From: Solimonas sp. SE-A11
Lineage (GTDB): Bacteria > Pseudomonadota > Gammaproteobacteria > Nevskiales > Nevskiaceae
Direction: 5' to 3'
Assembly: GCF_030345715.1 (NCBI RefSeq)
Contig: NZ_JAUASX010000007.1
Span: forward strand, 124,001 to 188,000
DNA length: 64,000 nt
A model generated the notes under the pieces. The model was not told the DNA's origin. It did no database searches and saw nothing but the letters and a program-made list of their open reading frames with translations. A program made the translations under genes and the position numbers. Shown here one piece after another: positions 23,807 to 58,491 of the stretch (positions are counted from its first letter, which is position 1; every line of letters begins with the position of its first letter).

Positions 23807-24313
23807 TCAGGTCGTACTGGTGCTGCGCATCTTCTGACGCCCTGCCCTCACGCTCCGCGCCAGACTCTCCAGCGCCGGTCGCAGGATCACGTACATCAGC
23901 GGCACCACCACCAGCGCGCTGATCGCCCACACCAGGCTGCCGCCCACCGCGATCACTCCGTAGTCCAGCACGAACTGCTTCGGGCTGTGGGCGAAGCGTT
24001 CGGCCAGTTCCGCCACATCCAGCAGCGGTGCCGGCTCGCTGCCGAGCAGCCGCTCGCCAGCACGGTAATAGGGGTATAGCAACAGGATATGCACCGGCGC
24101 CAGCAGCGCGTTGACCAGCTGCATCAGCGGCTGGTTGAGCCGCAGCGCCCAGGCACAGACCGCGCACAGCGCCGTGGTGACGCCGAAGATCGGGAAGACG
24201 CTGAGCAGGGCGCCCAGCGACACGGTGAAGGCGATACGCTGCGGCGTGACGCCCTGCGTCAGCTGCGCCATCACCACCCGCTTCACGCGGGCGCGCCAGC
24301 CTTCCTTGGTCAT
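23807..24313 (-). CDS. DUF2062 membrane protein
   Basis: 168 residues with three or four helices. The family pattern is visible (TQGVTPQRIAFTVSLGALLSVFPIFG near the N-terminus, NQPLMQLVNALLAPVHILLLYPYYRAGE). DUF2062 proteins are inner-membrane proteins of unknown function that often sit near lipid genes. Its ATG overlaps the stop of the preceding membrane protein (ATGA), tying it to the Cfa-like operon. Confidence 0.87.
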   Translation of the reverse strand: MTKEGWRARVKRVVMAQLTQGVTPQRIAFTVSLGALLSVFPIFGVTTALCAVCAWALRLNQPLMQLVNALLAPVHILLLYPYYRAGERLLGSEPAPLLDVAELAERFAHSPKQFVLDYGVIAVGGSLVWAISALVVVPLMYVILRPALESLARSVRAGRQKMRSTSTT

Positions 24314-24672
24314 GCGCTGTCGGGACGCAGCAGGACCTCGCGCGCACCCGCGCGCGGCGGCAAGGTCCACAGCACCTTCAGCATGTAGGCCGCCATGGCG
24401 ATGTTGCCCAGCAGCAGCACGGCCGGCAGCCAGGCGATGCGCGCCACCACGCTGCGTTCGCGGTAGGCGATCCACAGCCAGAACCACAGGAAGCCGAAGT
24501 AGGCGTCGAACAGCGTGGCGATGGTCCAGGGGTTGTAGCCGGCCCGGGGGTTGTCCATCAGGTCCTGGATCGCGGGGACGATGCTGACGATGCCGGAGGC
24601 CCAAACCGAGACGCCGACCAGGCCGGCCAGCACCACCAAAGACCACAGGAACAGCCCGCCGCGCACGCTCAT
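24310..24672 (-). CDS. Small membrane protein (DUF1475-like)
   Basis: 120 residues with about three membrane helices. NPWTIATLFDAYFGFLWFWLWIAYRE resembles the DUF1475 signature; the assignment is from memory and modest. It starts 5 bases after the methyltransferase gene ends and is coupled to the DUF2062 gene, so it is part of the lipid-modification operon. Confidence 0.75.
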   Translation of the reverse strand: MSVRGGLFLWSLVVLAGLVGVSVWASGIVSIVPAIQDLMDNPRAGYNPWTIATLFDAYFGFLWFWLWIAYRERSVVARIAWLPAVLLLGNIAMAAYMLKVLWTLPPRAGAREVLLRPDSA

Positions 24673-24677
24673 GACCT

Positions 24678-25973
24678 CTACCCCTTTTCCAGCGTCACCT
24701 GCATCAGGTCGATGCGCTCCACCCGGAAGCCGCATTCGCAATAGGCCAGATAGTAGCGCCACATGCGCAGGAAGCGCTCGTCGAACTGCGAGACCACCTG
24801 GTCGCGCACGGCCAGCACGTTGCGGTGCCAGTAGGCCAGGGTGTCGGCGTAGTCATGGCCGAAGTAGCGCGGCTCCCTCGCCTGCAGGCCGGCTTTCTGC
24901 GCCAGGTCCATGAAGCGCTGCGGCGGGCACAGCATGCCGCCGGGGAAGATGTACTTCTGGATGAAATCGCGCTTGGTCAGGTATTGCTCGAAGATCGACT
25001 CGTCGATGGTGATGCCCTGGATCGCGGCGCGGCCGCCCGGCTTCAGGGCCTTCTCGATGGCGGCGAAGTAGCCCGGCCAATATTCCGCACCCACCGCCTC
25101 GTACATCTCGATCGACACCACGCGATCGTACTGGCCCTGGATGTCACGATAGTCGCGCAGCTCGAACTGCACGCGGTCGGCCACGCCGGCCAGCTCGGCG
25201 CGGCGGCGCGCTTCCTTGAGCTGCTCGTCCGACAGCGTGATGCTGGTGACGCGGCAGCCGGAATGCTGCGCGGCGTAGATCGCGAAGCCACCCCAGCCCG
25301 AACCGATCTCCAGAAGGTGGTGCTCCGGCCGCAGGTCCAGGCGCTCGTACATCAGCCGGAACTTGTTGAGCTGGGCGTCATGCAGCGTCTGGTTGGGCTC
25401 GGCGAACATGGCCGACGAATAGGCCATGGTGTCGTCCAGCCAGAGCTTGTAGAAGTCGTTGCCCAGGTCGTAGTGGTACTGGATGTTCTCGCGCGAGCCG
25501 GCACGGGTGTTGGCGCGGCGGCGATGCTGCCACCAGCCGTACACCTTGCCCAGCCAGTTCACCTCGAACGGGCCCTTGTAGTAAGGCTCGTTGAGATACA
25601 TCACCGCCAGCAGTGGCGCCAGGTCCGGCGAGTCCCAGCAGCCATCCAGGTAGGCCTCGCCGAAGCCCACCTCGCCGCCGCTCAGCACGTGCGTCATGAA
25701 GCGCTCGTTGCGGATGTTGAGCACGCCGCGCAGCTCCGTGCGCTCCTGGCCGCGGAACAGGCGCCGCTCGCCGTTGGGCAGGTTCACTTCCAGCTGCCCA
25801 TAGTGCAGCCCGCGCAGCATGTACATCATCAGCCGTAGCCGCAGGCTCAGCCGTGACGAGGCGGCCTGTGGCGCCAGCGCCGCGGGCAGGTCTGGCGAGA
25901 AGCCATCGCGCCCCAGCACGAGTCCCAGCGGATCGTCGAGTCCGTCCTGCTTGTCTTCGGGTTTCTGGCTCAT
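24678..25973 (-). CDS. Cyclopropane-fatty-acyl-phospholipid synthase family methyltransferase (Cfa/UfaA1-like)
   Basis: 431 residues. It methylates unsaturated acyl chains in membrane phospholipids using S-adenosylmethionine. The N-terminal lipid-binding domain is followed by QYHYDLGNDFYKLWLDD, the SAM motif LEIGSGWGGFA, and the QKYIFPGGMLCP and YALTYWHRN-like (YADTLAYWHRN) stretches. Unlike stand-alone Cfa, it lies in an operon with an FAD amine oxidase and DUF1365, as mycobacterial ufaA1 and the methyl-furan fatty acid genes do, so the product may be something other than a cyclopropane. Confidence 0.93.
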   Translation of the reverse strand: MSQKPEDKQDGLDDPLGLVLGRDGFSPDLPAALAPQAASSRLSLRLRLMMYMLRGLHYGQLEVNLPNGERRLFRGQERTELRGVLNIRNERFMTHVLSGGEVGFGEAYLDGCWDSPDLAPLLAVMYLNEPYYKGPFEVNWLGKVYGWWQHRRRANTRAGSRENIQYHYDLGNDFYKLWLDDTMAYSSAMFAEPNQTLHDAQLNKFRLMYERLDLRPEHHLLEIGSGWGGFAIYAAQHSGCRVTSITLSDEQLKEARRRAELAGVADRVQFELRDYRDIQGQYDRVVSIEMYEAVGAEYWPGYFAAIEKALKPGGRAAIQGITIDESIFEQYLTKRDFIQKYIFPGGMLCPPQRFMDLAQKAGLQAREPRYFGHDYADTLAYWHRNVLAVRDQVVSQFDERFLRMWRYYLAYCECGFRVERIDLMQVTLEKG

Positions 25974-26002
25974 GGTGCTCGGTTCGCTTCTTCGTTCTTG
26001 TT

Positions 26003-26767
26003 TCAGGTCAGGTCCTGCGGCAGCGGTGCCGGCTTGGATCGGTAGCCGGCCCCGCGCAACCACAGCTTCAATGCTTCCCAGTGGATGCCGGCCACCACCT
26101 TCACCGCCATCCAGGGCATGCGCAGCACTTGCCGCAGCAGGGCCGCATCGGACAGCTCGCGGCGCTCCGCCGCCAGCGTGGCGTCCATCACCGGTACGCC
26201 GTCGCGGCTCTCGTGAATCGCCACGCGCAGGCGCTCGCCCGGCTCGCCCAGCTGGAAGCGGTACTGGCCCGCGCGATCCAGGAAGGGCGAGACATGGAAG
26301 CACTTGTCCTTGTCATGCACCTGTTCATACGGCATCGGCGCGCCGCCGGATGCGAGCAGGTAGCTGTGCCGCTCGCCGAAGGTGTTGCGCACCTCGGCGA
26401 TCACTGCGCGCAGGGAGCCGTCGCGGTACTCGCAGTACCACAGACTGATCGGGTTGAAGGCCCAGCCGAATATCCGTGGCAGGGTCAGCAGGCGGATGCG
26501 CCCGCCGTCCGGCTCGATGCCATGGCGGCGCAGGCAGTCCTCCGCCCAGGGCCGCAGGCCGCGGCCATCGCCGTAGTCGCGCGTACGCAGGCTCAGCAGG
26601 TTGAAGCGGTCCAGCGAGAAGAAGCGCAGGCGCTGCTGCATCTCTGGCAGCCGGTCGATGTCCACCAGCAGGTAGAACACGCGGTAGACGAAGCGATACA
26701 GCGGCGCGATACGGCGCCGGTGCATGACCCGGGCGGGGTACAGCCAGCCGGCCTGATCCACGTCCAT
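26003..26767 (-). CDS. DUF1365 domain protein
   Basis: 254 residues of DUF1365 (YPARVMHRR near the N-terminus, FGWAFNPISLWYCE, EVRNTFGERHSYLL, KCFHVSPF). The biochemical function is unknown, but the family nearly always accompanies an FAD amine oxidase and a Cfa-like methyltransferase. It starts 3 bases after the FAD gene, so the two are tightly coupled. Confidence 0.92.
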   Translation of the reverse strand: MDVDQAGWLYPARVMHRRRIAPLYRFVYRVFYLLVDIDRLPEMQQRLRFFSLDRFNLLSLRTRDYGDGRGLRPWAEDCLRRHGIEPDGGRIRLLTLPRIFGWAFNPISLWYCEYRDGSLRAVIAEVRNTFGERHSYLLASGGAPMPYEQVHDKDKCFHVSPFLDRAGQYRFQLGEPGERLRVAIHESRDGVPVMDATLAAERRELSDAALLRQVLRMPWMAVKVVAGIHWEALKLWLRGAGYRSKPAPLPQDLT

Positions 26768-26770
26768 CGG

Positions 26771-28114
26771 CTACCCCGCGATCCCCGCCGCCGCTGCCGG
26801 CAGCCCCGGGGCCGAGGATGCCGTCCCCGCATGGGATTCATCAAGGCGGGCCCACTGGGGCAGGCAGTCCCGGTCCAGGCCCGCCACCGCGCGCAGGCCG
26901 GAGCGCAGGCCGTCCTCGTGGAAGCCGTAGCCGGTCCAGGCGCCGGCGAACCACAGCCCGCCACGGCCCTGTATCTCGGGCAGCCGACGGTGCGTCATGC
27001 TGCTGGCGGCGCCGTAGTGGGGGTGGTGATAGAGCGTGTCGTAGATTACCCGCTCGGCCGGCACCTCGCGGGTGGGGTTGAGCGTGACGATATAGTTCAC
27101 CGGGCCGGGGATGCCCTGCAGCAGGTTCATCCAATAGCTGCCGGAGATCGGCCGGTCGTGCACCTCGTCGCGGTCGTTGATGTAGTTCCAGGACGCCCAG
27201 GCGGCGCGGCGACGCGGCAGGAAGGACTCGTCGGTGTGCAGCACGCAGCGGCTCGCGTTGTAGGGAATGCCGCCGAGGATCTCCCGCTCGTCCGCCGCCG
27301 CGTCGGCCAGCAACGCCAGGGCCTGGTCGGAGTGCGTGGCGCAGACCACGCGCTCGTAGGTCTCGGCGCCGACCGCCGTGCTCACCTCCACGCCGCCCGC
27401 GCCGCGGCGCAGTCGCGTGACCGGCGCATTGCTGCGCAAGCGGCCCGGGAAGCGCTCCAGCAGCTTCTTCAGGTACTGGTGCGAGCCGCCCACCACGGTG
27501 TGCCAGACCGGCTGGCCGGTGGCGGTGAACAGAGAGTGCGAGTCGAAGAAGCGCATGAAGTCCGCGGCGGGATATTCCATGGCCTTCTGCGGCGAGCAGC
27601 TCCAGATCAGGCCGGCCATCGGCAGCAGGTAGCGGCTGGCCAGCTCCGGCGAATAGCCCGCGTCGCGCAGGTAGTCGCCCAGCGAGCCTTGGGGCAGCAC
27701 GCCGCCGCGCAGCAGGGCGTTGGCATTGCGGTTCAGCTTCAGGATGTCCAGCAGCATGCGCACATGCTTCCAGCGGAACAGGTTGGAGGGCTGGGCGAAC
27801 ACCGTCCACAGCCGGTCGCTGCCGGTCCACTCGTAGGCACCGCCGCCCAGCGACACGCCGAAGGACATGCTGGTGGGCCGGGTCTGCACCTCCAGCTCAC
27901 GGAACAGCGCCGTCAGGTTCGGGTAGTTGATGCCGTTGTAGACGATCCAGCCGGTGTCCACCGGTTGAACCCCCTCCGGCGTCGGCACCAGGATAGTGTT
28001 GGTATGGCCGCCGCAGCGCCCGTCCTGCTCGTACAGGGTGACGTCATGGCGGCGCGCCAGGAACGAGGCGGCGCTGAGCCCGGAAATGCCGGAACCGACG
28101 ACTGCGATCTTCAT
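26771..28114 (-). CDS. FAD-dependent amine oxidase-family oxidoreductase
   Basis: 447 residues with the Rossmann GxGxxG motif at residues 7-12 (VVGSGISGLSAA) and LYEQDGRCGGHT binding the ADP-ribose. The C-terminal FAD motif is GLWFAGAWTGYGFHEDG. This subfamily, found with DUF1365 and Cfa-like enzymes, is thought to act on lipid acyl chains rather than amines. It is the first gene of the operon FAD oxidase-DUF1365-Cfa-DUF1475-DUF2062, preceded by a candidate ECF-sigma promoter. Confidence 0.92.
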   Translation of the reverse strand: MKIAVVGSGISGLSAASFLARRHDVTLYEQDGRCGGHTNTILVPTPEGVQPVDTGWIVYNGINYPNLTALFRELEVQTRPTSMSFGVSLGGGAYEWTGSDRLWTVFAQPSNLFRWKHVRMLLDILKLNRNANALLRGGVLPQGSLGDYLRDAGYSPELASRYLLPMAGLIWSCSPQKAMEYPAADFMRFFDSHSLFTATGQPVWHTVVGGSHQYLKKLLERFPGRLRSNAPVTRLRRGAGGVEVSTAVGAETYERVVCATHSDQALALLADAAADEREILGGIPYNASRCVLHTDESFLPRRRAAWASWNYINDRDEVHDRPISGSYWMNLLQGIPGPVNYIVTLNPTREVPAERVIYDTLYHHPHYGAASSMTHRRLPEIQGRGGLWFAGAWTGYGFHEDGLRSGLRAVAGLDRDCLPQWARLDESHAGTASSAPGLPAAAAGIAG

Positions 28115-28156
28115 TGCGGGGAGGCTGGTTTCTGTTGAGTCTGCTGTGCATTGTCC

Positions 28157-28181
28157 TTACGCGGGAAATCGCTACCGGGAT
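28157..28181 (-). promoter_or_regulatory. Candidate ECF-sigma promoter of the lipid-modification operon
   Basis: On the minus strand, GCATCC at the -35 position begins the 10-mer ATCCCGGTAG (28181-28172). The first base of CGTAAG (28161) lies 20 bases after the first base of the 10-mer. The predicted transcript start is about 35 bases before the FAD-gene ATG. The same 10-mer, with CGT 21 bases downstream, precedes the ECF sigma gene at 54801. Confidence 0.5.
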
Positions 28182-28188
28182 GCAGTCC

Positions 28189-28812
28189 TCAACGGGGGGC
28201 ACCCAATAGCGGTTTCAGGGTCGGCCAGACCGCGTCCAGCAGCTTGGGCTGGGCGGCGGCGGAGGGGTGGATGCCGTCGTCCTGGAAATTCACCGGGTCC
28301 AGGGCGATCGGCATCAGGAAGAACGGCACCACCGGGGTTTTCGTGGCCTGGCCCAGCTCGGTGAAGGTCTTGGTGAAGCTTTCGCCATAGGCCGGGCCGT
28401 AGTTGGCCGGAATGCGCATCTCGAACAGCACCGGCCTGGCGCCCGCATCGCGGGATAGTTGCAGCATCTTGTCCAGGTTGGCGCGCAGGTTCCTCACCGG
28501 CAGGGCGCGCAAGCCGTCGTTGGCGCCCAGTTCCAGCAGAACGATTGCCGGCTGGTGCTGTCCCAGTGCTGCCGGCAGGCGGGCGAGGCCGCCGGCGCTG
28601 GTCTCGCCGCTGATGCTGGCGTTGACCACCACGTGGGGATAGCCTTCCTTTCGCAGCCGCTGTTGCAGCAGTGCCACCCAGCCCTGGGAGGCCTGGATGC
28701 CGTAGGCCGCGCTGAGACTGTCCCCGAACGCCAGGATTTTCGGTGCCTGAGAAGGTGCCTGGGCGGTCGCCGCGCCGCCCCACAGACACAGGACCAGAAA
28801 GACATACCGCAT
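28189..28812 (-). CDS. tesA: TesA-like acyl-CoA thioesterase I / arylesterase (GDSL)
   Basis: 207 residues. A secretion signal (FLVLCLWGGAATAQA) is followed by the SGNH hydrolase blocks: ILAFGDSLSAAYG (catalytic Ser), SGETSAGG, LELGANDGLR and GIHPSAAAQ (catalytic Asp/His). It is a periplasmic esterase/thioesterase. As in E. coli, it is divergent from a ybbA-type ABC gene; here the two start codons physically overlap in CATG. Confidence 0.93.
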   Translation of the reverse strand: MRYVFLVLCLWGGAATAQAPSQAPKILAFGDSLSAAYGIQASQGWVALLQQRLRKEGYPHVVVNASISGETSAGGLARLPAALGQHQPAIVLLELGANDGLRALPVRNLRANLDKMLQLSRDAGARPVLFEMRIPANYGPAYGESFTKTFTELGQATKTPVVPFFLMPIALDPVNFQDDGIHPSAAAQPKLLDAVWPTLKPLLGAPR

Positions 28813-50408: not shown

Positions 50409-52262
50409 CTACTGCCGGAACCCCTGCTTCAGCGCCTGCATCAGCGGGTCGCGCTGGCCGGCCGGCGCATTCGGCAGGTAGCCCTGGTTGATCGTCCACA
50501 CGATCGTGCCGCCCAGGCCGTTCTGCTTCACGTAGACCGCCTTCTCGGCGATGGACTGCGGGTCTTCATACGAGATGAAGTTGCACTGCTGCGGACCCAG
50601 GCGCGTGGCGGAGCCCAGGTACGGCGCCTTGGCGGCCTCGTGCCAGCGCTTGGCGGAGGCGTTGTAGTACAGCGTCATGATGTTGGTGTAGCTCATGTCG
50701 TTGTCGTCGTTGCCGTTGATCGGCAGGCCCCCGGTATCCACGCCGTCGGTGGACTGGTAGGGCTGTGTCACGCCGCGCCAGCAGGAGCCGTAGAAGCCGA
50801 TGCCGATACCGAGCTTGGCCGCCGGCACGCCGACGCGCAGCCAGTGGCGCACGGTGGAGTCGATGGACGTGGGGGTCATGCCGGTCTCGCCGTAGATCGC
50901 GGAGCTGTGCCAGGTGTTCCAGCCCCAGAAGCCGGAGGCCATGCCGTAGCTCATGATGTTGATCTGGTCGAACAGCGGCGCAATCTCGGCGTACCAGGGC
51001 TCGGCCTGCTCGGGGAAGTTGTTGTTGATCCAGCCGATGGGGATGGTCAGCAGCTTGCCCGGCGCGGCGGCGCGTAGGTCCTGCGCCAGACGCTTCACGT
51101 TGGGCTGGTCCTTGACCTCGATCGGTTCCCAGTCGATGTCGTAGCCGTCGAAGCCGTACTCGTTGGCCAGCGCCACCAGGTTGGCGACGAAGCGCGCGCG
51201 GTTGGCGTTGGACGCGGCCCCGACGAAGCCGTCGTACTCACCCGCACCACCCAGCATCACGATGGCCTTGGTGCCGGCGGCATGCGCGGCGGCGACCACC
51301 TGCTTGGCCCAACGCGGACCCTCCACGGCGTCGATGTCGAAGTCTGTCACCAGGTTGCCGTTGGCCAACGGCCGCACGCGGCCGATGACGATGTGCGTCA
51401 TGGCGCTGAAGTCCACCACCTCCACCGGGTAGAGATCGCGGGCGTAGCCGACGTAGTAGCCGGTGACCCACTTGCCCGAGACGGGCGGCGAGTCGTTGTC
51501 CAGGATCGTGCGGGTATGCACGGCCGGGCTGCCGAGCGTGGCGTTGGCCGGCGAGGCCAGCGTCAGGATGGCGGTCTCGGCGGATTCCACCTGCGTGTCA
51601 TCCACCGGCGTGATGGTCAGCGTCTTGCGCGTCTGGCCGGGCGAGAACGTCAGCGTGCCGCTGGGCGCCACCTGCCAGTCACCAGGGCGCGTGGCGGTGC
51701 CGGAGGTGGTGTAGCCAACCGTGACGGTCTGCGTGCTGGCGGCGGACAGCACCACATCCACCGTGCTGGACTGCGCCTCGGTGCCGCTGGCGGTGGCGGC
51801 GGAAAAGCTCAGTGTCGGCGTCGCGACGTCATTGTCGGCGATGGTCAGCGTGTGTTGCGCCGGCGTGCCGAGCTTGCCGTAGCCGGGCGTGCCCAAGGTC
51901 AGCACCAGGGTCTCGGTGCCTTCCACCTGGGTGTCGTCCACCGTGGTCACGCTGATGGTCTTGAGCGTCTCGCCGGGGGCGAACTGGATCGTGGCGGGCG
52001 TTGCACTGTAGTCGTTGGCGGAAGCACTGCCGCCGCGCGCATACGACAGCGACACCTCACGCGTGCTGCTGCGCGACAGCTTGAGATTGATGCTGCGGGC
52101 GCCGCCCTCGGTAACCGAGGAGTTGGCGGCTTCGAAGCTGACCACCGGCTTGGGCTTGAGCGCCTCCAGCAGGTTGTCGAACAGGCCCGCATGGGCACTG
52201 GGCGCCATGCCGAGGCACAACGCGGCAGCGCCTAATCGCAGCGCGGGAAGAAACGGTTTCAT
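50409..52262 (-). CDS. Secreted GH18 chitinase with two Calx-beta domains
   Basis: 617 residues. Signal peptide (ends SAHAG), Calx-beta domain 1 (about 45-140, VSFEAANSSVTEGG..IADND) and domain 2 (about 150-255, LSFSAATASGTEAQS..ILDND), then a GH18 barrel. The catalytic DGxDxDxE motif is FDGYDIDWEP; the substrate-binding MSYG and the C-terminal VWTIN are present. It should cleave chitin or a related GlcNAc polymer outside the cell. Calx-beta modules are calcium-binding adhesion folds and replace the usual chitin-binding domain here. Confidence 0.93.
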   Translation of the reverse strand: MKPFLPALRLGAAALCLGMAPSAHAGLFDNLLEALKPKPVVSFEAANSSVTEGGARSINLKLSRSSTREVSLSYARGGSASANDYSATPATIQFAPGETLKTISVTTVDDTQVEGTETLVLTLGTPGYGKLGTPAQHTLTIADNDVATPTLSFSAATASGTEAQSSTVDVVLSAASTQTVTVGYTTSGTATRPGDWQVAPSGTLTFSPGQTRKTLTITPVDDTQVESAETAILTLASPANATLGSPAVHTRTILDNDSPPVSGKWVTGYYVGYARDLYPVEVVDFSAMTHIVIGRVRPLANGNLVTDFDIDAVEGPRWAKQVVAAAHAAGTKAIVMLGGAGEYDGFVGAASNANRARFVANLVALANEYGFDGYDIDWEPIEVKDQPNVKRLAQDLRAAAPGKLLTIPIGWINNNFPEQAEPWYAEIAPLFDQINIMSYGMASGFWGWNTWHSSAIYGETGMTPTSIDSTVRHWLRVGVPAAKLGIGIGFYGSCWRGVTQPYQSTDGVDTGGLPINGNDDNDMSYTNIMTLYYNASAKRWHEAAKAPYLGSATRLGPQQCNFISYEDPQSIAEKAVYVKQNGLGGTIVWTINQGYLPNAPAGQRDPLMQALKQGFRQ

Positions 52263-52463
52263 CACGGGCACCCTCTATCTAATAGTGATGCGCCATTGTC
52301 CGCGGGCCAAAAGTGCCGCTTTGTGCGGCATTTCACCGGAAACCGGGATTCACCGTCAGGGGACATCCGATACGGAAAAAGCCTACAGCGCTGATCGACC
52401 TGCTCCGCACCAACGGCTGCGCAGCGATGTGCTGCGGGTCACAATCCGGTGGGCTCGCGCGTC

Positions 52464-53483: not shown

Positions 53484-54230
53484 TTACAGCTGCAGCAGCG
53501 GCGCGGTGGTGAGCACGGGCCCGGTCGGCAGGCCGGTGGGCGAACCGCCCTTGGGCTCCAGGCTGACGGCGATCACCGGCTTCTGCGGCATCTTCATCTC
53601 GGGCAGCGGCAGGTCGGCATTGCTGCCTTCCGGCATCAGGCCCATGGGATGCGGCTGGCCGGTGTCGTCCAGCACCCAGAGCTGCAGGCTTTGCGTGTCC
53701 AGATCGTGCGGGTAGCTGCCGGCGGCGCTGACCTTGAGGCTGCGCCGCGCCGGCGTCACCACCACGATCCACTGCGCCGGCACGTTGGTGGGCTGCAGCA
53801 TGGCGACGTAGGGCATGGGCTGGATCACCTGCACGGTGCGCACCTGCTCGATCACCTGCGGTGACTGCTGCAACTGCAGCCACAGCGCGTAGCCCAGGCC
53901 CACCGCCGCCAGCGAGGCGGCCGCCGACAGCGTGCGCCAGAAGCCCAGCCGGCCACGGTCCTCGGTGACGGAACGCGCAGCCGGCAACGCCACCACTCGG
54001 GCGGCCTGGATGCGCTGCTCGATCTCGGCCCAGACGATCTCGCGCGGCACCACCGGCTTGAAGCTGCGCTGCAGCGGCGCCAGGCGGCGCTCCCAATAGC
54101 GCAGTTCCTTGACCAGCGCCGCGTCCTTCTTCAGCAAGCGCTCGAAGCGGCGGCGCGCGGCACCGTGCAGCGTGCCGAGCACGTACTCGGCGGCGAGCAT
54201 CTGGCGGAGCTTGGGGTTCTGGTATTTCAT
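53484..54230 (-). CDS. RskA-type anti-sigma factor
   Basis: 248 residues. The N-terminal sigma-binding domain starts LRQMLAAEYVLGTLHGAARRRFERLL without zinc ligands. One membrane helix is at about 96-114 (FWRTLSAAASLAAVGLGYAL), and the RskA C-terminal periplasmic domain follows (VPAQWIVVVTPARRSLKVSA; LQLWVLDDTGQPHPMGLM). It should hold the sigma factor at the membrane until periplasmic stress triggers proteolysis. It starts 4 bases after the sigma gene. Confidence 0.93.
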   Translation of the reverse strand: MKYQNPKLRQMLAAEYVLGTLHGAARRRFERLLKKDAALVKELRYWERRLAPLQRSFKPVVPREIVWAEIEQRIQAARVVALPAARSVTEDRGRLGFWRTLSAAASLAAVGLGYALWLQLQQSPQVIEQVRTVQVIQPMPYVAMLQPTNVPAQWIVVVTPARRSLKVSAAGSYPHDLDTQSLQLWVLDDTGQPHPMGLMPEGSNADLPLPEMKMPQKPVIAVSLEPKGGSPTGLPTGPVLTTAPLLQL

Positions 54231-54234
54231 CGGC

Positions 54235-54801
54235 CTAGGCTTCCAGGCACTCGCGCAGGCGCTGCAGGCCGCGGCGTACCCAGCTCTTCACCGTGCCCAG
54301 CGGCGCATTCAGCGACGCGGCCAGCTCCTGGTGGGTGTAGCCCTCGTAATAGGCCAGCAGCACGCTGCGGCGCTGCTCCGGCGCCAGGCCGGTCATGCAA
54401 TCGTTGAGGCGGCGGATGCCCTCACGCTCCACGGCGCGTAGCTGCGGGTCGTCGGCGGCTCCATCGGCGAAGGTCATCGGCGGGGCATCCTCTTCCTCCG
54501 GCATCTCCACCTCGGGCCGGCGGACGCGCAGCAGGTCCAGGGCGCGGTAGCGCGCCACGGTCATCAGCCAGGTCAGCGGCTGGCCCTTTTCAGGGGCGTA
54601 GGTATCCGCCTTCTGCCAGATTTTGATGTAGCAATCCTGCAAGGCTTCCTCCGCCCAATCCCGACGCTGCAATATACGCATCAGCAGGCCGAACAGATGC
54701 GGGGAACTGGCGTCGTAAAGGCGCCGGAACGCCAGGGCATCACCGCCAGCGGTGGCGCGCAGCAGTGACTCCAGGTTGTCGGCGGGTTCGGCTCGGGCCA
54801 T
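54235..54801 (-). CDS. ECF sigma factor (SigK-like)
   Basis: 188 residues. Region 2 includes FRRLYDASSPHLFGLLMRIL and AEEALQDCYIKIWQKA; region 4 has LAYYEGYTHQELAASLNAPLGTVKSWVRRGLQRLREC. It is paired with an RskA-type anti-sigma gene as in the mycobacterial sigK-rskA locus. The motif ATCCCGGTAG upstream also precedes the FAD oxidase-DUF1365-Cfa operon, suggesting autoregulation and control of that operon. Confidence 0.93.
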   Translation of the reverse strand: MARAEPADNLESLLRATAGGDALAFRRLYDASSPHLFGLLMRILQRRDWAEEALQDCYIKIWQKADTYAPEKGQPLTWLMTVARYRALDLLRVRRPEVEMPEEEDAPPMTFADGAADDPQLRAVEREGIRRLNDCMTGLAPEQRRSVLLAYYEGYTHQELAASLNAPLGTVKSWVRRGLQRLRECLEA

Positions 54802-54874: not shown

Positions 54875-55917
<1,043 letters not shown>

Positions 55918-56658: not shown

Positions 56659-58491
56659 CTACTGCGGCGGCACCGAGTAGGTGCAGACCCAGATCTCGGC
56701 CGTCTCGCAGCGCGCCCGCGCGCAGCCCACCTTGCGTACCTGCGTATCCACCAGCTGCGCGTACTGGCCGCAGCCGTCGCGAGGCTCCAGGCAGCGGCCG
56801 CTCTCGTGGCTGTAGTGACGACTGCCTTCGTTCCAGCGCGCTACCACCTGCCCGGGCGTGCGGCGCCAGCCCTCGTAAGGCGCATTGGAATAGGCGTGGA
56901 ACAGGGTGTCGCGGTACTGCGCGCGCCAGGCCGGGTCGGCGTTCACGCGTGGCTTGCAGCCCTCTCCGGCCAGTTGCTCCGCCCAATGCTGCGCGGCGCG
57001 CACGTTGGGCTGGGCCCAGTTCAGCAGCGGCACACCGGCCTGCTGGCGTACGTAGTTGAGCGGCGGCAGCATCTCGGTCAGCTCGGGGGCCGGCGACGGT
57101 CGCGGCGTGGCGGCGACCGTCGCCGCGGGTGAGGCCTTCCTGTCTTTCGCCGGGGGCGCCGCGGCGGGCGGCATCCGCAGCGGCGGCGGCGTGGGTGCCG
57201 GTTCGTCCCAGGTGGCCGGCGCGGGCTGCGGCTCGGGCTCAATCTCGGTCACCGCAAGCGGCGGCGGTTCGGCGGGGACCTTGGGAGCCTGTGCCGACTC
57301 CGCCGCCGGCGGCGCCTCGCCCGGGTTGAAGTACAACGCGGCGGCGAACAGGGCCAGCAGCAGCATGGCGGCCATCGCCGCGCGCGGCAGCCAGGCCGGC
57401 AAGGTCCGCGGCGTCAGCAGCATGGATGCCGGCACCCGCGCCGCCTGCTGCGCCGCCAGCGGCTGCGTGCGGTCATCGTCGGGGTCTTCCAGTGCGGCGG
57501 TGGGGTCCTGGGTGACGTCCAGGTCCACCGGCGATGCCGCCAGGCCTACGGACGGGGCCGCCCGTGGCGCGACCAGGGTCTGGCCGGTCAGCGCGCGGCG
57601 CCAGTCGGCCACGGTCTGCGGACGCTCGGCGATCGGCACGCGCAGCGCCCAGTCCACGGCGCGCAGGAAGTTGGCGTCGAAGCCCTGGGTGACGAGGTTC
57701 TCCAGTGGCTGCAACGGGTCCTGCCCGAGGCGGTCCACCGCATCCGGCGGCTTGTGCCCCGTGAGCGCGCGATGGATCACGCCGCCCAGGGCGTAGATGT
57801 CGCTCCAGGGTCCCTGGTTGCCCTTCTGCGAGTACTGCTCCACTGGGGCATAGCCGGCGGTGAGCACGTTGAGCATCGAGCGGCTGTGGCTGCCCAGCTC
57901 GCCGCGCGCGGCGCCGAAGTCGATCAGCACCGGCGAGCCGTCGTCGCGCAGCAGGATGTTCTCCGGCTTGAGGTCGCGGTGCAGCACGCCGGTGGTATGC
58001 ACGTTCTGCAGGCCATCGAGCAGCGGCAGCAGCAAGGCCTCCAGGCGTGCCTGCTCCGCGATCACGGTGCCGCGCAACTCCTCGGCCAGCGAGCGCCCGC
58101 GGACGTAGTCCATGACGATGTAGGCGGTGCCGTTGGCCTCGAACAGCCGGTGCACCTGCACCACGTTGGGATGGTTGAAGCGCGCCAGCAGGCGCGCCTC
58201 GTTGAGGAAGCAGCGGCGGCCCCAGTCGAAGGCGGCGGCGTCTTCCTCGGAGCGCACGACGACCTGGCCGTCGGCCATGCGCAGGGCGAACTCCACCGGC
58301 AGGTATTCCTTGATCGCCACCTCGTGGTCGAGGTTGGTATCCAGCGCCAGGTAGGTCACGCCGAAGCCGCCGGGCTTGCCCAGCACGCGGCGGATCTCGT
58401 ACTCCATCAGGCGCGTGCCTTCGGGCAGCACGCCGCCCTTGCCGGCGCCGGGCATCCTGGGTTCGGGGGCGGTTCGCGAAAGGTCGGTCAT
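56659..58491 (-). CDS. Ser/Thr protein kinase fused to an extracytoplasmic CAP domain
   Basis: 610 residues. Kinase domain about 25-300: [12 protein letters not shown] (P-loop), VAIKEY (Lys), [18 protein letters not shown] and [10 protein letters not shown] (activation segment). A membrane helix lies near 370-388, a Pro/Ala-rich linker to about 470, and a C-terminal CAP/SCP domain with [17 protein letters not shown] and [22 protein letters not shown]. The CAP domain keeps the disulfide cysteines but has Gln where the usual GHYTQ His stands. The topology implies an external sensor or effector on an internal kinase. It converges on the GST gene (7-base gap). Confidence 0.9.

What the first reader, a model, noticed from the sequence alone, without database searches (positions are those of the whole stretch)
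24678..28181. FAD oxidase-DUF1365-Cfa lipid operon with a SigK/RskA-type regulator 26 kb away
The leftward operon FAD amine oxidase, DUF1365, Cfa/UfaA1-like methyltransferase and two small membrane proteins has the core gene set that adjoins sigK-rskA in Mycobacterium tuberculosis (Rv0444c-Rv0449c; established knowledge). This window also has an ECF sigma plus RskA pair, at 53484-54801, but not adjacent. I infer a split regulon in which periplasmic stress releases the sigma factor and turns on unsaturated-fatty-acid modification. In other bacteria such clusters make modified fatty acids such as furan fatty acids, so the product here may be new.
Basis: partly seen in the sequence, partly recalled or inferred. 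Interest (0 to 1): 0.75.

Follow-up and report, generated by a model that had tools for sequence, protein, structure and literature searches.

The report
SigK-type control of furan-lipid operon
A Solimonas-like bacterium carries a known set of three genes for oxidant-scavenging furan lipids, and comparison of many genomes suggests it is switched on by a SigK/RskA-type stress switch that once sat beside it and now lies 25 kb away.

Summary
In detail: an operon at 28114-23807 (FAD oxidase, DUF1365, Cfa-type methyltransferase, two small membrane proteins) and an ECF sigma/RskA pair at 54801-53484. The enzymes are the ufaD-ufaO-ufaM set that makes furan fatty acids elsewhere. The Cfa lacks a bicarbonate-binding His of cyclopropane synthases, as do 137 of 138 operon Cfas, so the likely product is known, not new.

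The split-regulon idea gains support. (1) GCATCC-N15-17-CGTA lies upstream of ufaD in 55 of 77 loci of the order, here at 28183-28158, and in 6 of 7 loci with sigma-RskA adjacent. (2) It occurs 15 times in 26 sigma-RskA loci outside the order; permuted patterns average 0.17. (3) The loci lie within 50 kb in 30 of 36 same-contig genomes, and co-occur non-randomly.

Against: 11 genomes with the sigma lack the site; three have the site without this sigma; a second SigK-like sigma exists. Nothing was measured. Elsewhere the operon often adjoins sigmaE-ChrR, more often with TGATCC, suggesting interchangeable regulators.

The parts
26771..28114 (-). ufaD-like FAD amine-oxidase-family protein (447 aa), first gene of the operon
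   Evidence: Pfam PF01593 E 1.3e-23; gene order as RPA2571-2569 of R. palustris (passages of PMC7380195)
26003..26767 (-). ufaO-like DUF1365 protein (254 aa)
   Evidence: PF07103 E 1e-80; UfaO holds a DUF1365 domain
24678..25973 (-). ufaM-like Cfa-family SAM methyltransferase (431 aa)
   Evidence: PF02353 E 1.1e-84; E. coli Cfa His266 is Gln here and His240 is Ala, Glu239 and Tyr317 kept
24310..24672 (-). small membrane protein, DUF1475-like (120 aa)
   Evidence: PF07343 E 5e-6; hydrophobic stretches
23807..24313 (-). small membrane protein, DUF2062
   Evidence: PF09835 E 3e-13; start codon read
28158..28183 (-). putative SigK-type promoter GCATCC-N16-CGTA(A), 43 bp before the ufaD ATG and just after the tesA stop
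   Evidence: GCATCC-N15-17-CGTA upstream of ufaD in 55 of 77 loci of the order
54235..54801 (-). SigK-type ECF sigma factor (188 aa) with Cys135 and Cys185
   Evidence: best solved relative SigK 4nqw E 3.2e-31; cysteines
53484..54230 (-). RskA-type anti-sigma factor (248 aa)
   Evidence: PF10099 E 6.5e-21; NCBIfam NF052375 anti-sigma 107.1 bits over cut-off 100
28189..28800 (-). tesA-like GDSL lipase/thioesterase immediately upstream; conserved neighbour, possible source of read-through
   Evidence: PF13472 E 1.8e-24; found next to ufaD in loci of the order (43 with 100 bp of upstream DNA)
54880..55917 (+). hemB-like gene divergent from the sigma gene; marks the conserved regulator neighbourhood
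   Evidence: the label hemB is from my own reading of the protein, no family search was made

Best explanation
The operon is a furan fatty acid pathway (ufaD-ufaO-ufaM) transcribed from an ECF promoter at 28183-28158 that is read by the SigK-type sigma factor encoded at 54801-54235, which the RskA-type protein at 54230-53484 holds inactive until a stress signal arrives. UfaM would methylate membrane vaccenate, UfaD add a second double bond, and UfaO insert oxygen from O2 to give a methylated furan lipid that protects the membrane from oxidants. Regulator and operon were once neighbours and were separated by insertions and inversions while the promoter was kept. Shown here: gene identities, promoter conservation, synteny, co-occurrence, active-site pattern. 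Inferred: that this sigma reads this promoter, the product, and a redox or photo-oxidative signal.
For: GCATCC-N15-17-CGTA in 55 of 77 ufaD upstreams against hemB 0/52, lolD 1/47, tesA 0/43, DUF1365 0/79, DUF1475 0/37, degV 0/6, rskA 0/83, sigma 3/80, cfa 5/80. 50 sites with N16 were laid out: the boxes are fixed by construction, the spacer carries 0.02-0.68 bits a base, and 42 of 50 lie 27-49 bp before the start codon. 6 of 7 loci with sigma-RskA adjacent to ufaD have it. In 26 sigma-RskA loci outside the order: 15 hits at N16, 6 within about 310 bp upstream of the sigma gene; 0 or 1 hit at each other spacer from 10 to 23; 600 permuted patterns mean 0.17, maximum 3; TGATCC version 0. Same contig in 36 genomes, within 50 kb in 30. 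Fisher p 7.9e-5 for DUF1365 with RskA_C, 7e-4 with SigK-like ECF. The own genome gave two ECF factors at E<=1e-15 to this sigma. Both SigK-type cysteines in 78 of 87 RskA-linked sigmas and 0 of 37 others. Cfa His266->Gln in 137 of 138 operons.
Against: Of the 22 loci without the strict site, 11 belong to genomes that do have a sigma of this kind and show no single-mismatch site at N16 either (G033, G043, G059, G064, G068, G070, G071, G072, G076, G080, G081). G007-G009 have the site but only ECF factors 32-36 % identical. One genome alone gives no signal: 11 hits against 8 for the reversed control. A second SigK-like ECF sits on contig 17. The sigma misses NCBIfam's SigK cut-off (165 of 226 bits). 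RskA's membrane segment is borderline by hydropathy (1.51). Genomes are related, so counts are not independent. The sigma tree is a short search with moderate support, and one of the seven adjacent sigmas (L063) falls elsewhere. Outside the order no ufaD gene was seen within 1.5 kb of the sigma (0 of 26).
Confidence: 0.72

Rival explanations
1. The promoter is real, but another ECF factor reads it in this genome: the second SigK-like sigma on contig 17 (next to a lipocalin gene, no anti-sigma seen in the 3.5 kb stretch).
For: 52 % identical to the window sigma; lipocalin neighbour.
Against: Orthologues at 76-100 % identity in 3 of the 4 genomes of the genus; every other match in the 85 genomes is at most 53 % identical, whereas the promoter is order-wide.
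Confidence: 0.1
2. The operon answers to a ChrR-type (ECF11, singlet-oxygen) sigma as in Rhodobacter, not to the SigK-type one.
For: In 22 of 72 GTDB loci outside the order an ECF without RskA adjoins ufaD; 10 of 10 anti-sigmas scanned there carry the ChrR cupin. Two of these 22 have GCATCC.
Against: TGATCC form in 0 of 70 non-adjacent loci of the order. This genome has two ChrR-cupin matches, best 32.7 bits, which is within the range of true ChrR proteins (29-58 bits), but no sigma or RskA lies in the 3.5-4.5 kb fetched around either, and the better one reads as a secreted cupin. No third ECF at E<=1e-15.
Confidence: 0.05
3. The operon is mainly read through from tesA by housekeeping polymerase and the GCATCC site is a minor or decayed relic in this genus.
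For: tesA ends 74 bp upstream on the same strand; several relatives lack the site.
Against: GCATCC-N16-CGTA is present in all four genomes of the genus; no terminator or sigma-70 promoter was found between the genes, which says little in this GC-rich DNA.
Confidence: 0.13
4. The Cfa protein is an ordinary cyclopropane synthase and the operon makes cyclopropane or branched lipids.
For: CMAS family; E 2e-78 to the E. coli-type Cfa model.
Against: Below that model's cut-off (264 of 400 bits); His266 -> Gln and His240 -> Ala; a paralogue in the same genome keeps Cys, Glu-His and His (read by eye).
Confidence: 0.15

Closest known systems
Furan fatty acid genes of Rhodopseudomonas palustris (RPA2571-2569) and Rhodobacter sphaeroides (RSP1091-1087 plus ufaM); passages of PMC7380195
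   Same: UfaD, UfaO (DUF1365), UfaM; same gene order as RPA2571-2569.
   Different: R. sphaeroides uses sigmaE-ChrR. The order's promoter is GCATCC-N16-CGTA where ChrR-type loci more often have TGATCC-N16-CGTA (9 of 22).
SigK-RskA locus of Mycobacterium tuberculosis with Rv0446c-Rv0449c (gene set recalled)
   Same: ECF SigK, RskA, FAD oxidase, DUF1365, Cfa-type methyltransferase; SigK cysteine pair aligns; sigK there is autoregulated via the Rv0449c promoter (passage of PMC7509140).
   Different: Here regulator and operon are 25 kb apart and no site was seen before the sigma gene. The mycobacterial SigK box could not be compared: the paper that describes it is not held.
SigK-RskA of Yersinia enterocolitica (ECF19; passages of PMC7509140)
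   Same: Gram-negative SigK-RskA pair.
   Different: The linked target described there is an mpt83-type gene, not the ufa genes.

Membership tests
SigK/RskA ECF system (ECF18/19 type) | ECF sigma with regions 2 and 4, closest to SigK | tested here: met
   Pfam; best solved relative SigK 4nqw E 3.2e-31, next R. sphaeroides SigE 3e-22; best NCBIfam model SigK
SigK/RskA ECF system (ECF18/19 type) | NCBIfam SigK curated cut-off | tested here: not met
   165.3 bits against 226; so called SigK-type here, not SigK
SigK/RskA ECF system (ECF18/19 type) | Adjacent anti-sigma with RskA C-terminal domain | tested here: met
   PF10099 E 6.5e-21, directly downstream
SigK/RskA ECF system (ECF18/19 type) | Single membrane span in RskA | tested here: inconclusive
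   Best 19-residue hydropathy 1.51 at residue 100
SigK/RskA ECF system (ECF18/19 type) | Cysteine pair of SigK (C133, C183) | tested here: met
   Cys135 and Cys185 align with cysteines of 4nqw; 78 of 87 RskA-linked sigmas have both
SigK/RskA ECF system (ECF18/19 type) | Release of the sigma by a signal | not testable with these tools
   needs experiment
Furan fatty acid (ufa) operon | UfaD, UfaO (DUF1365) and UfaM genes together | tested here: met
   order as RPA2571-2569
Furan fatty acid (ufa) operon | UfaM rather than cyclopropane synthase | tested here: inconclusive
   Bicarbonate ligand His replaced by Gln, shared by 137 of 138 operon Cfas; no verified UfaM sequence was compared
Furan fatty acid (ufa) operon | Furan lipid made | not testable with these tools
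   needs lipid analysis
ECF11/ChrR system | ChrR anti-sigma beside the sigma, TGATCC -35 box | tested here: not met
   Anti-sigma is RskA_C; box is GCATCC

The most novel reading that the evidence does not exclude
SigK-RskA and sigmaE-ChrR are interchangeable switches of one conserved furan-lipid operon: a change of two bases in an otherwise common promoter (TGATCC to GCATCC, same 16-base spacer, same CGTA) moves the operon from one sigma to the other. By extension the unknown signal of SigK-RskA systems would be singlet oxygen or membrane photo-oxidation, sensed partly through the sigma's cysteine pair.
Probability: 0.3. Interest if true: 0.75.

Novelty: new variant of a known kind. Interest (0 to 1): 0.5.

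Why it matters
The stimulus of SigK-RskA systems is described as unknown (passages of PMC7509140 and PMC9861118). A predicted promoter and one conserved target with a known type of product make the question testable in environmental bacteria. The genomes, with the two loci from adjacent to 360 kb apart, are also a good case of a regulator drifting away from its target while the promoter holds.

Tried and rejected
Regulon beyond the operon: strict pattern hits in the own genome are 11 against 8 for the reversed control. The most tempting, before an EGKCG-repeat gene, lies in the end of the upstream reading frame and was matched in G051 but not in G050 or G052, so I count it as chance. Autoregulation of the sigma: no site in the 300 bp upstream in the window; 3 of 80 in the order. 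A kinship-corrected co-occurrence test was not run. Fatty acids of Solimonas: no held paper has Solimonas, 11-methyl and fatty acid together. A printed SigK/ECF19 box: searches listed no paper that I recognised as giving GCATCC-N16-CGTA, and the passages I read of PMC7509140, PMC7406223 and PMC4821874 do not show it; whole papers, supplements and subscription journals were not read, and the 2008 paper on the mycobacterial SigK regulon is not held. A structure model of DUF1365 could not be run.

Rows dropped before counts; two ufaD loci whose contig ended at the gene (L104, L130) left out of 79; sigma hits under 40 % and Cfa hits under 35 % identity left out of their control sets. One search counted 146 Cfa rows, 8 of them second copies of loci of the order; one search recounted without those (138); the 74 GTDB loci include two of the window's order (L316, L326); without them 22 of 72 have an ECF without RskA beside ufaD, 4 an RskA-linked one, 5 an ECF elsewhere, 41 none (some of these contigs are short). 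Its 36 distances use, where a genome has two RskA genes, the one beside hemB (G015, G073, G074 and, by position, G079 are not the best-scoring copies). L305-L310, L316, L326 left out as copies of loci of the order, L254-L275 as duplicates; four of 30 loci (L395, L404, L412, L415) left out as members of the order. One search kept the best 80 of 589 candidates.
Full report
What is there. Searches confirm five co-directional genes on the minus strand: FAD oxidase 28114-26771, DUF1365 26767-26003, Cfa-type methyltransferase 25973-24678, a DUF1475-like protein 24672-24310 and DUF2062 24313-23807. The ECF sigma is at 54801-54235 and the RskA-type anti-sigma at 54230-53484. Two genomes of the window's genus carry contigs with the lengths of named records, G050 = Solimonas fluminis and G052 = Solimonas sp. 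BWSM_106; the window's own record is unnamed.

What the enzymes are. In R. sphaeroides and R. palustris, UfaM methylates vaccenate, UfaD desaturates the product, and UfaO (a DUF1365 protein) is needed for and proposed to insert the O2-derived oxygen of a furan fatty acid (passages of PMC7380195). The window has all three in the order of RPA2571-2569. In E. coli cyclopropane synthase a bicarbonate bound by Glu239, His266 and Tyr317 takes the proton (passages of PMC11387697). In the window protein Glu and Tyr are kept but His266 is Gln and the neighbouring His240 is Ala (read from the alignment). Among 138 operon-borne Cfas, His266 is Gln in 137 (His in L317), His240 is Ala in 138, and Cys139 is Ser, Ala or Gly in 138. 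A Cfa paralogue in the same genome keeps Cys, Glu-His and His (read by eye). So a UfaM-like methylation is more likely than a cyclopropane. No experimentally verified UfaM sequence was compared.

The promoter. Upstream of ufaD in the order I first saw, then counted, GCATCC-N16-CGTA: 55 of 77 loci within 300 bp with a spacer of 15-17. The pattern was read off the same sequences in which it was counted, so the fair controls are other genes of the same loci: hemB 0/52, lolD 1/47, tesA 0/43, DUF1365 0/79, DUF1475 0/37, degV 0/6, rskA 0/83, sigma 3/80, cfa 5/80. Five of the 22 loci without the strict pattern have it with one mismatch at N16 (L116, L117, L120, L126, L137; read). In the window it is at 28183-28158, directly after the tesA stop and 43 bp before the ufaD ATG.

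Does this sigma read it? Three lines. First, seven loci in the order still have sigma-RskA directly beside ufaD, and 6 of 7 have the same motif. In a quick tree six of these seven sigmas, with one GTDB sigma (L366), are the sister group of the window's group (support 81, several long branches flagged); the seventh, L063, joins rhizobial sigmas. Second, an independent set: SigK-like sigmas occur in 66 of 369 genomes drawn from the window's class, 4 of the 66 from its order (that the class is Gammaproteobacteria is recalled). The 30 loci returned all show an RskA match. In the 26 outside the order (88,677 bases) the motif occurs 15 times at N16, 6 of them within about 310 bp upstream of the sigma gene; every other spacer from 10 to 23 gives 0 or 1; 600 letter-permuted patterns average 0.17 with a maximum of 3; the TGATCC version occurs 0 times. 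Third, in the window's genome only two ECF factors match at E<=1e-15, this one and a contig-17 paralogue with orthologues at 76-100 % identity in 3 of 4 genomes of the genus and none above 53 % elsewhere in the order.

Separation. Of the 73 genomes with both genes, 36 have both on one contig; 30 of these are within 50 kb and the spread is 1 to 360 kb (coordinates). Asking for one contig favours short distances; in the five with at most two contigs (G003, G034, G035, G051, G080) the distances are 9, 191, 360, 28 and 4 kb. In all four genomes of the genus the loci are parallel and 27-28 kb apart. In the eight Salinisphaera-type genomes on one contig ufaD follows sigma-RskA at 3-12 kb in the same direction. 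This looks like one ancestral cluster taken apart by insertions and later inversions. DUF1365 and RskA_C co-occur: 73 genomes with both, 6 and 1 with one, 5 with neither, Fisher p 7.9e-5; in the 73 genomes at least 90 % complete 66, 2, 1, 4, p 6.7e-5; with SigK-like ECF at 1e-25 instead of RskA_C 68, 11, 1, 5, p 7e-4. Kinship was not corrected for.

What does not fit. Eleven genomes with a sigma of this kind have neither the strict site nor a one-mismatch site (G033, G043, G059, G064, G068, G070, G071, G072, G076, G080, G081); ten of the site-less loci, among them eight of these eleven, were searched further upstream, up to 3 kb, without a hit. G007-G009 have the site but only ECF factors 32-36 % identical. 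In G007 and G008 the RskA-linked ECF carries GCATCC-N16-CGAA before its own gene; in G060-G063 the ufaD box reads GAATCC or GCGTCC with CGAACT in the three loci with upstream DNA, while three of four sigma genes carry GCATCC-N16/17-CGAA (read by eye). That could be co-evolution of sigma and promoter; it is not tested. A single genome gives no statistical signal (11 hits, reversed control 8).

A second regulator of the same operon. Of 72 GTDB loci outside the order, 22 have an ECF without RskA beside ufaD and 4 an RskA-linked one (recounted without L316 and L326). Ten of the 22 neighbouring anti-sigmas were scanned and all 10 carry the ChrR cupin. The ufaD promoters of the 22 read TGATCC-N15-17-CGTA in 9, GCATCC in 2, other first bases in 4, none in 7; in the order's non-adjacent loci GCATCC 49 of 70 and TGATCC 0. 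Of the four RskA-linked loci outside the order three had no such site and one began TC, so the rule does not extend to them. The window's genome itself shows no ChrR system: its two cupin matches have no sigma or RskA within the 3.5-4.5 kb fetched around them.

Signal. SigK's stimulus is described as unknown (passages of PMC7509140 and PMC9861118). Hints: the two SigK cysteines are present in 78 of 87 RskA-linked sigmas and 0 of 37 others. In R. capsulatus an RpoE/ChrR pair that resembles SigK/RskA (34 % and 25 % identity) more than its R. sphaeroides namesakes is induced by singlet oxygen; but R. capsulatus has no homologue of ufaD and ufaO (passages of PMC7074977). In M. kansasii light regulates antigen genes that have putative SigK sites, yet dipZ, which also has one, did not respond (passage of PMC9861118). 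These make a photo-oxidative signal plausible, no more.

Verdict. It is a new variant of a known kind.

Noticed in passing
window 56659-58491 (-): Serine/threonine kinase fused to a C-terminal CAP (cysteine-rich secretory protein) domain.
   Followed up: partly
window 50409-52271 (-): GH18 chitinase-like protein with two Calx-beta stretches.
   Followed up: partly
L271 (G000:C17:66533-67066): Second SigK-like ECF factor beside a lipocalin gene, without an anti-sigma in the stretch seen.
   Followed up: partly
L221 1579-2774: EGKCG-repeat small protein (no Pfam match) followed by an MbnB/TglH/ChrH-family RiPP enzyme.
   Followed up: partly
L405, L406, L407, L408: Proteins with 'SSHREAP' near their start neighbour SigK-RskA pairs outside the order; the one scanned (L407) is DUF4331, and a GCATCC site lies just before it.
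   Followed up: partly
L160, L200, L184, L187, L193: Distant RskA-linked sigmas with GCATCC-N16/17-CGAA before their own gene, while ufaD boxes in part of these genomes shift to CGAACT.
   Followed up: no
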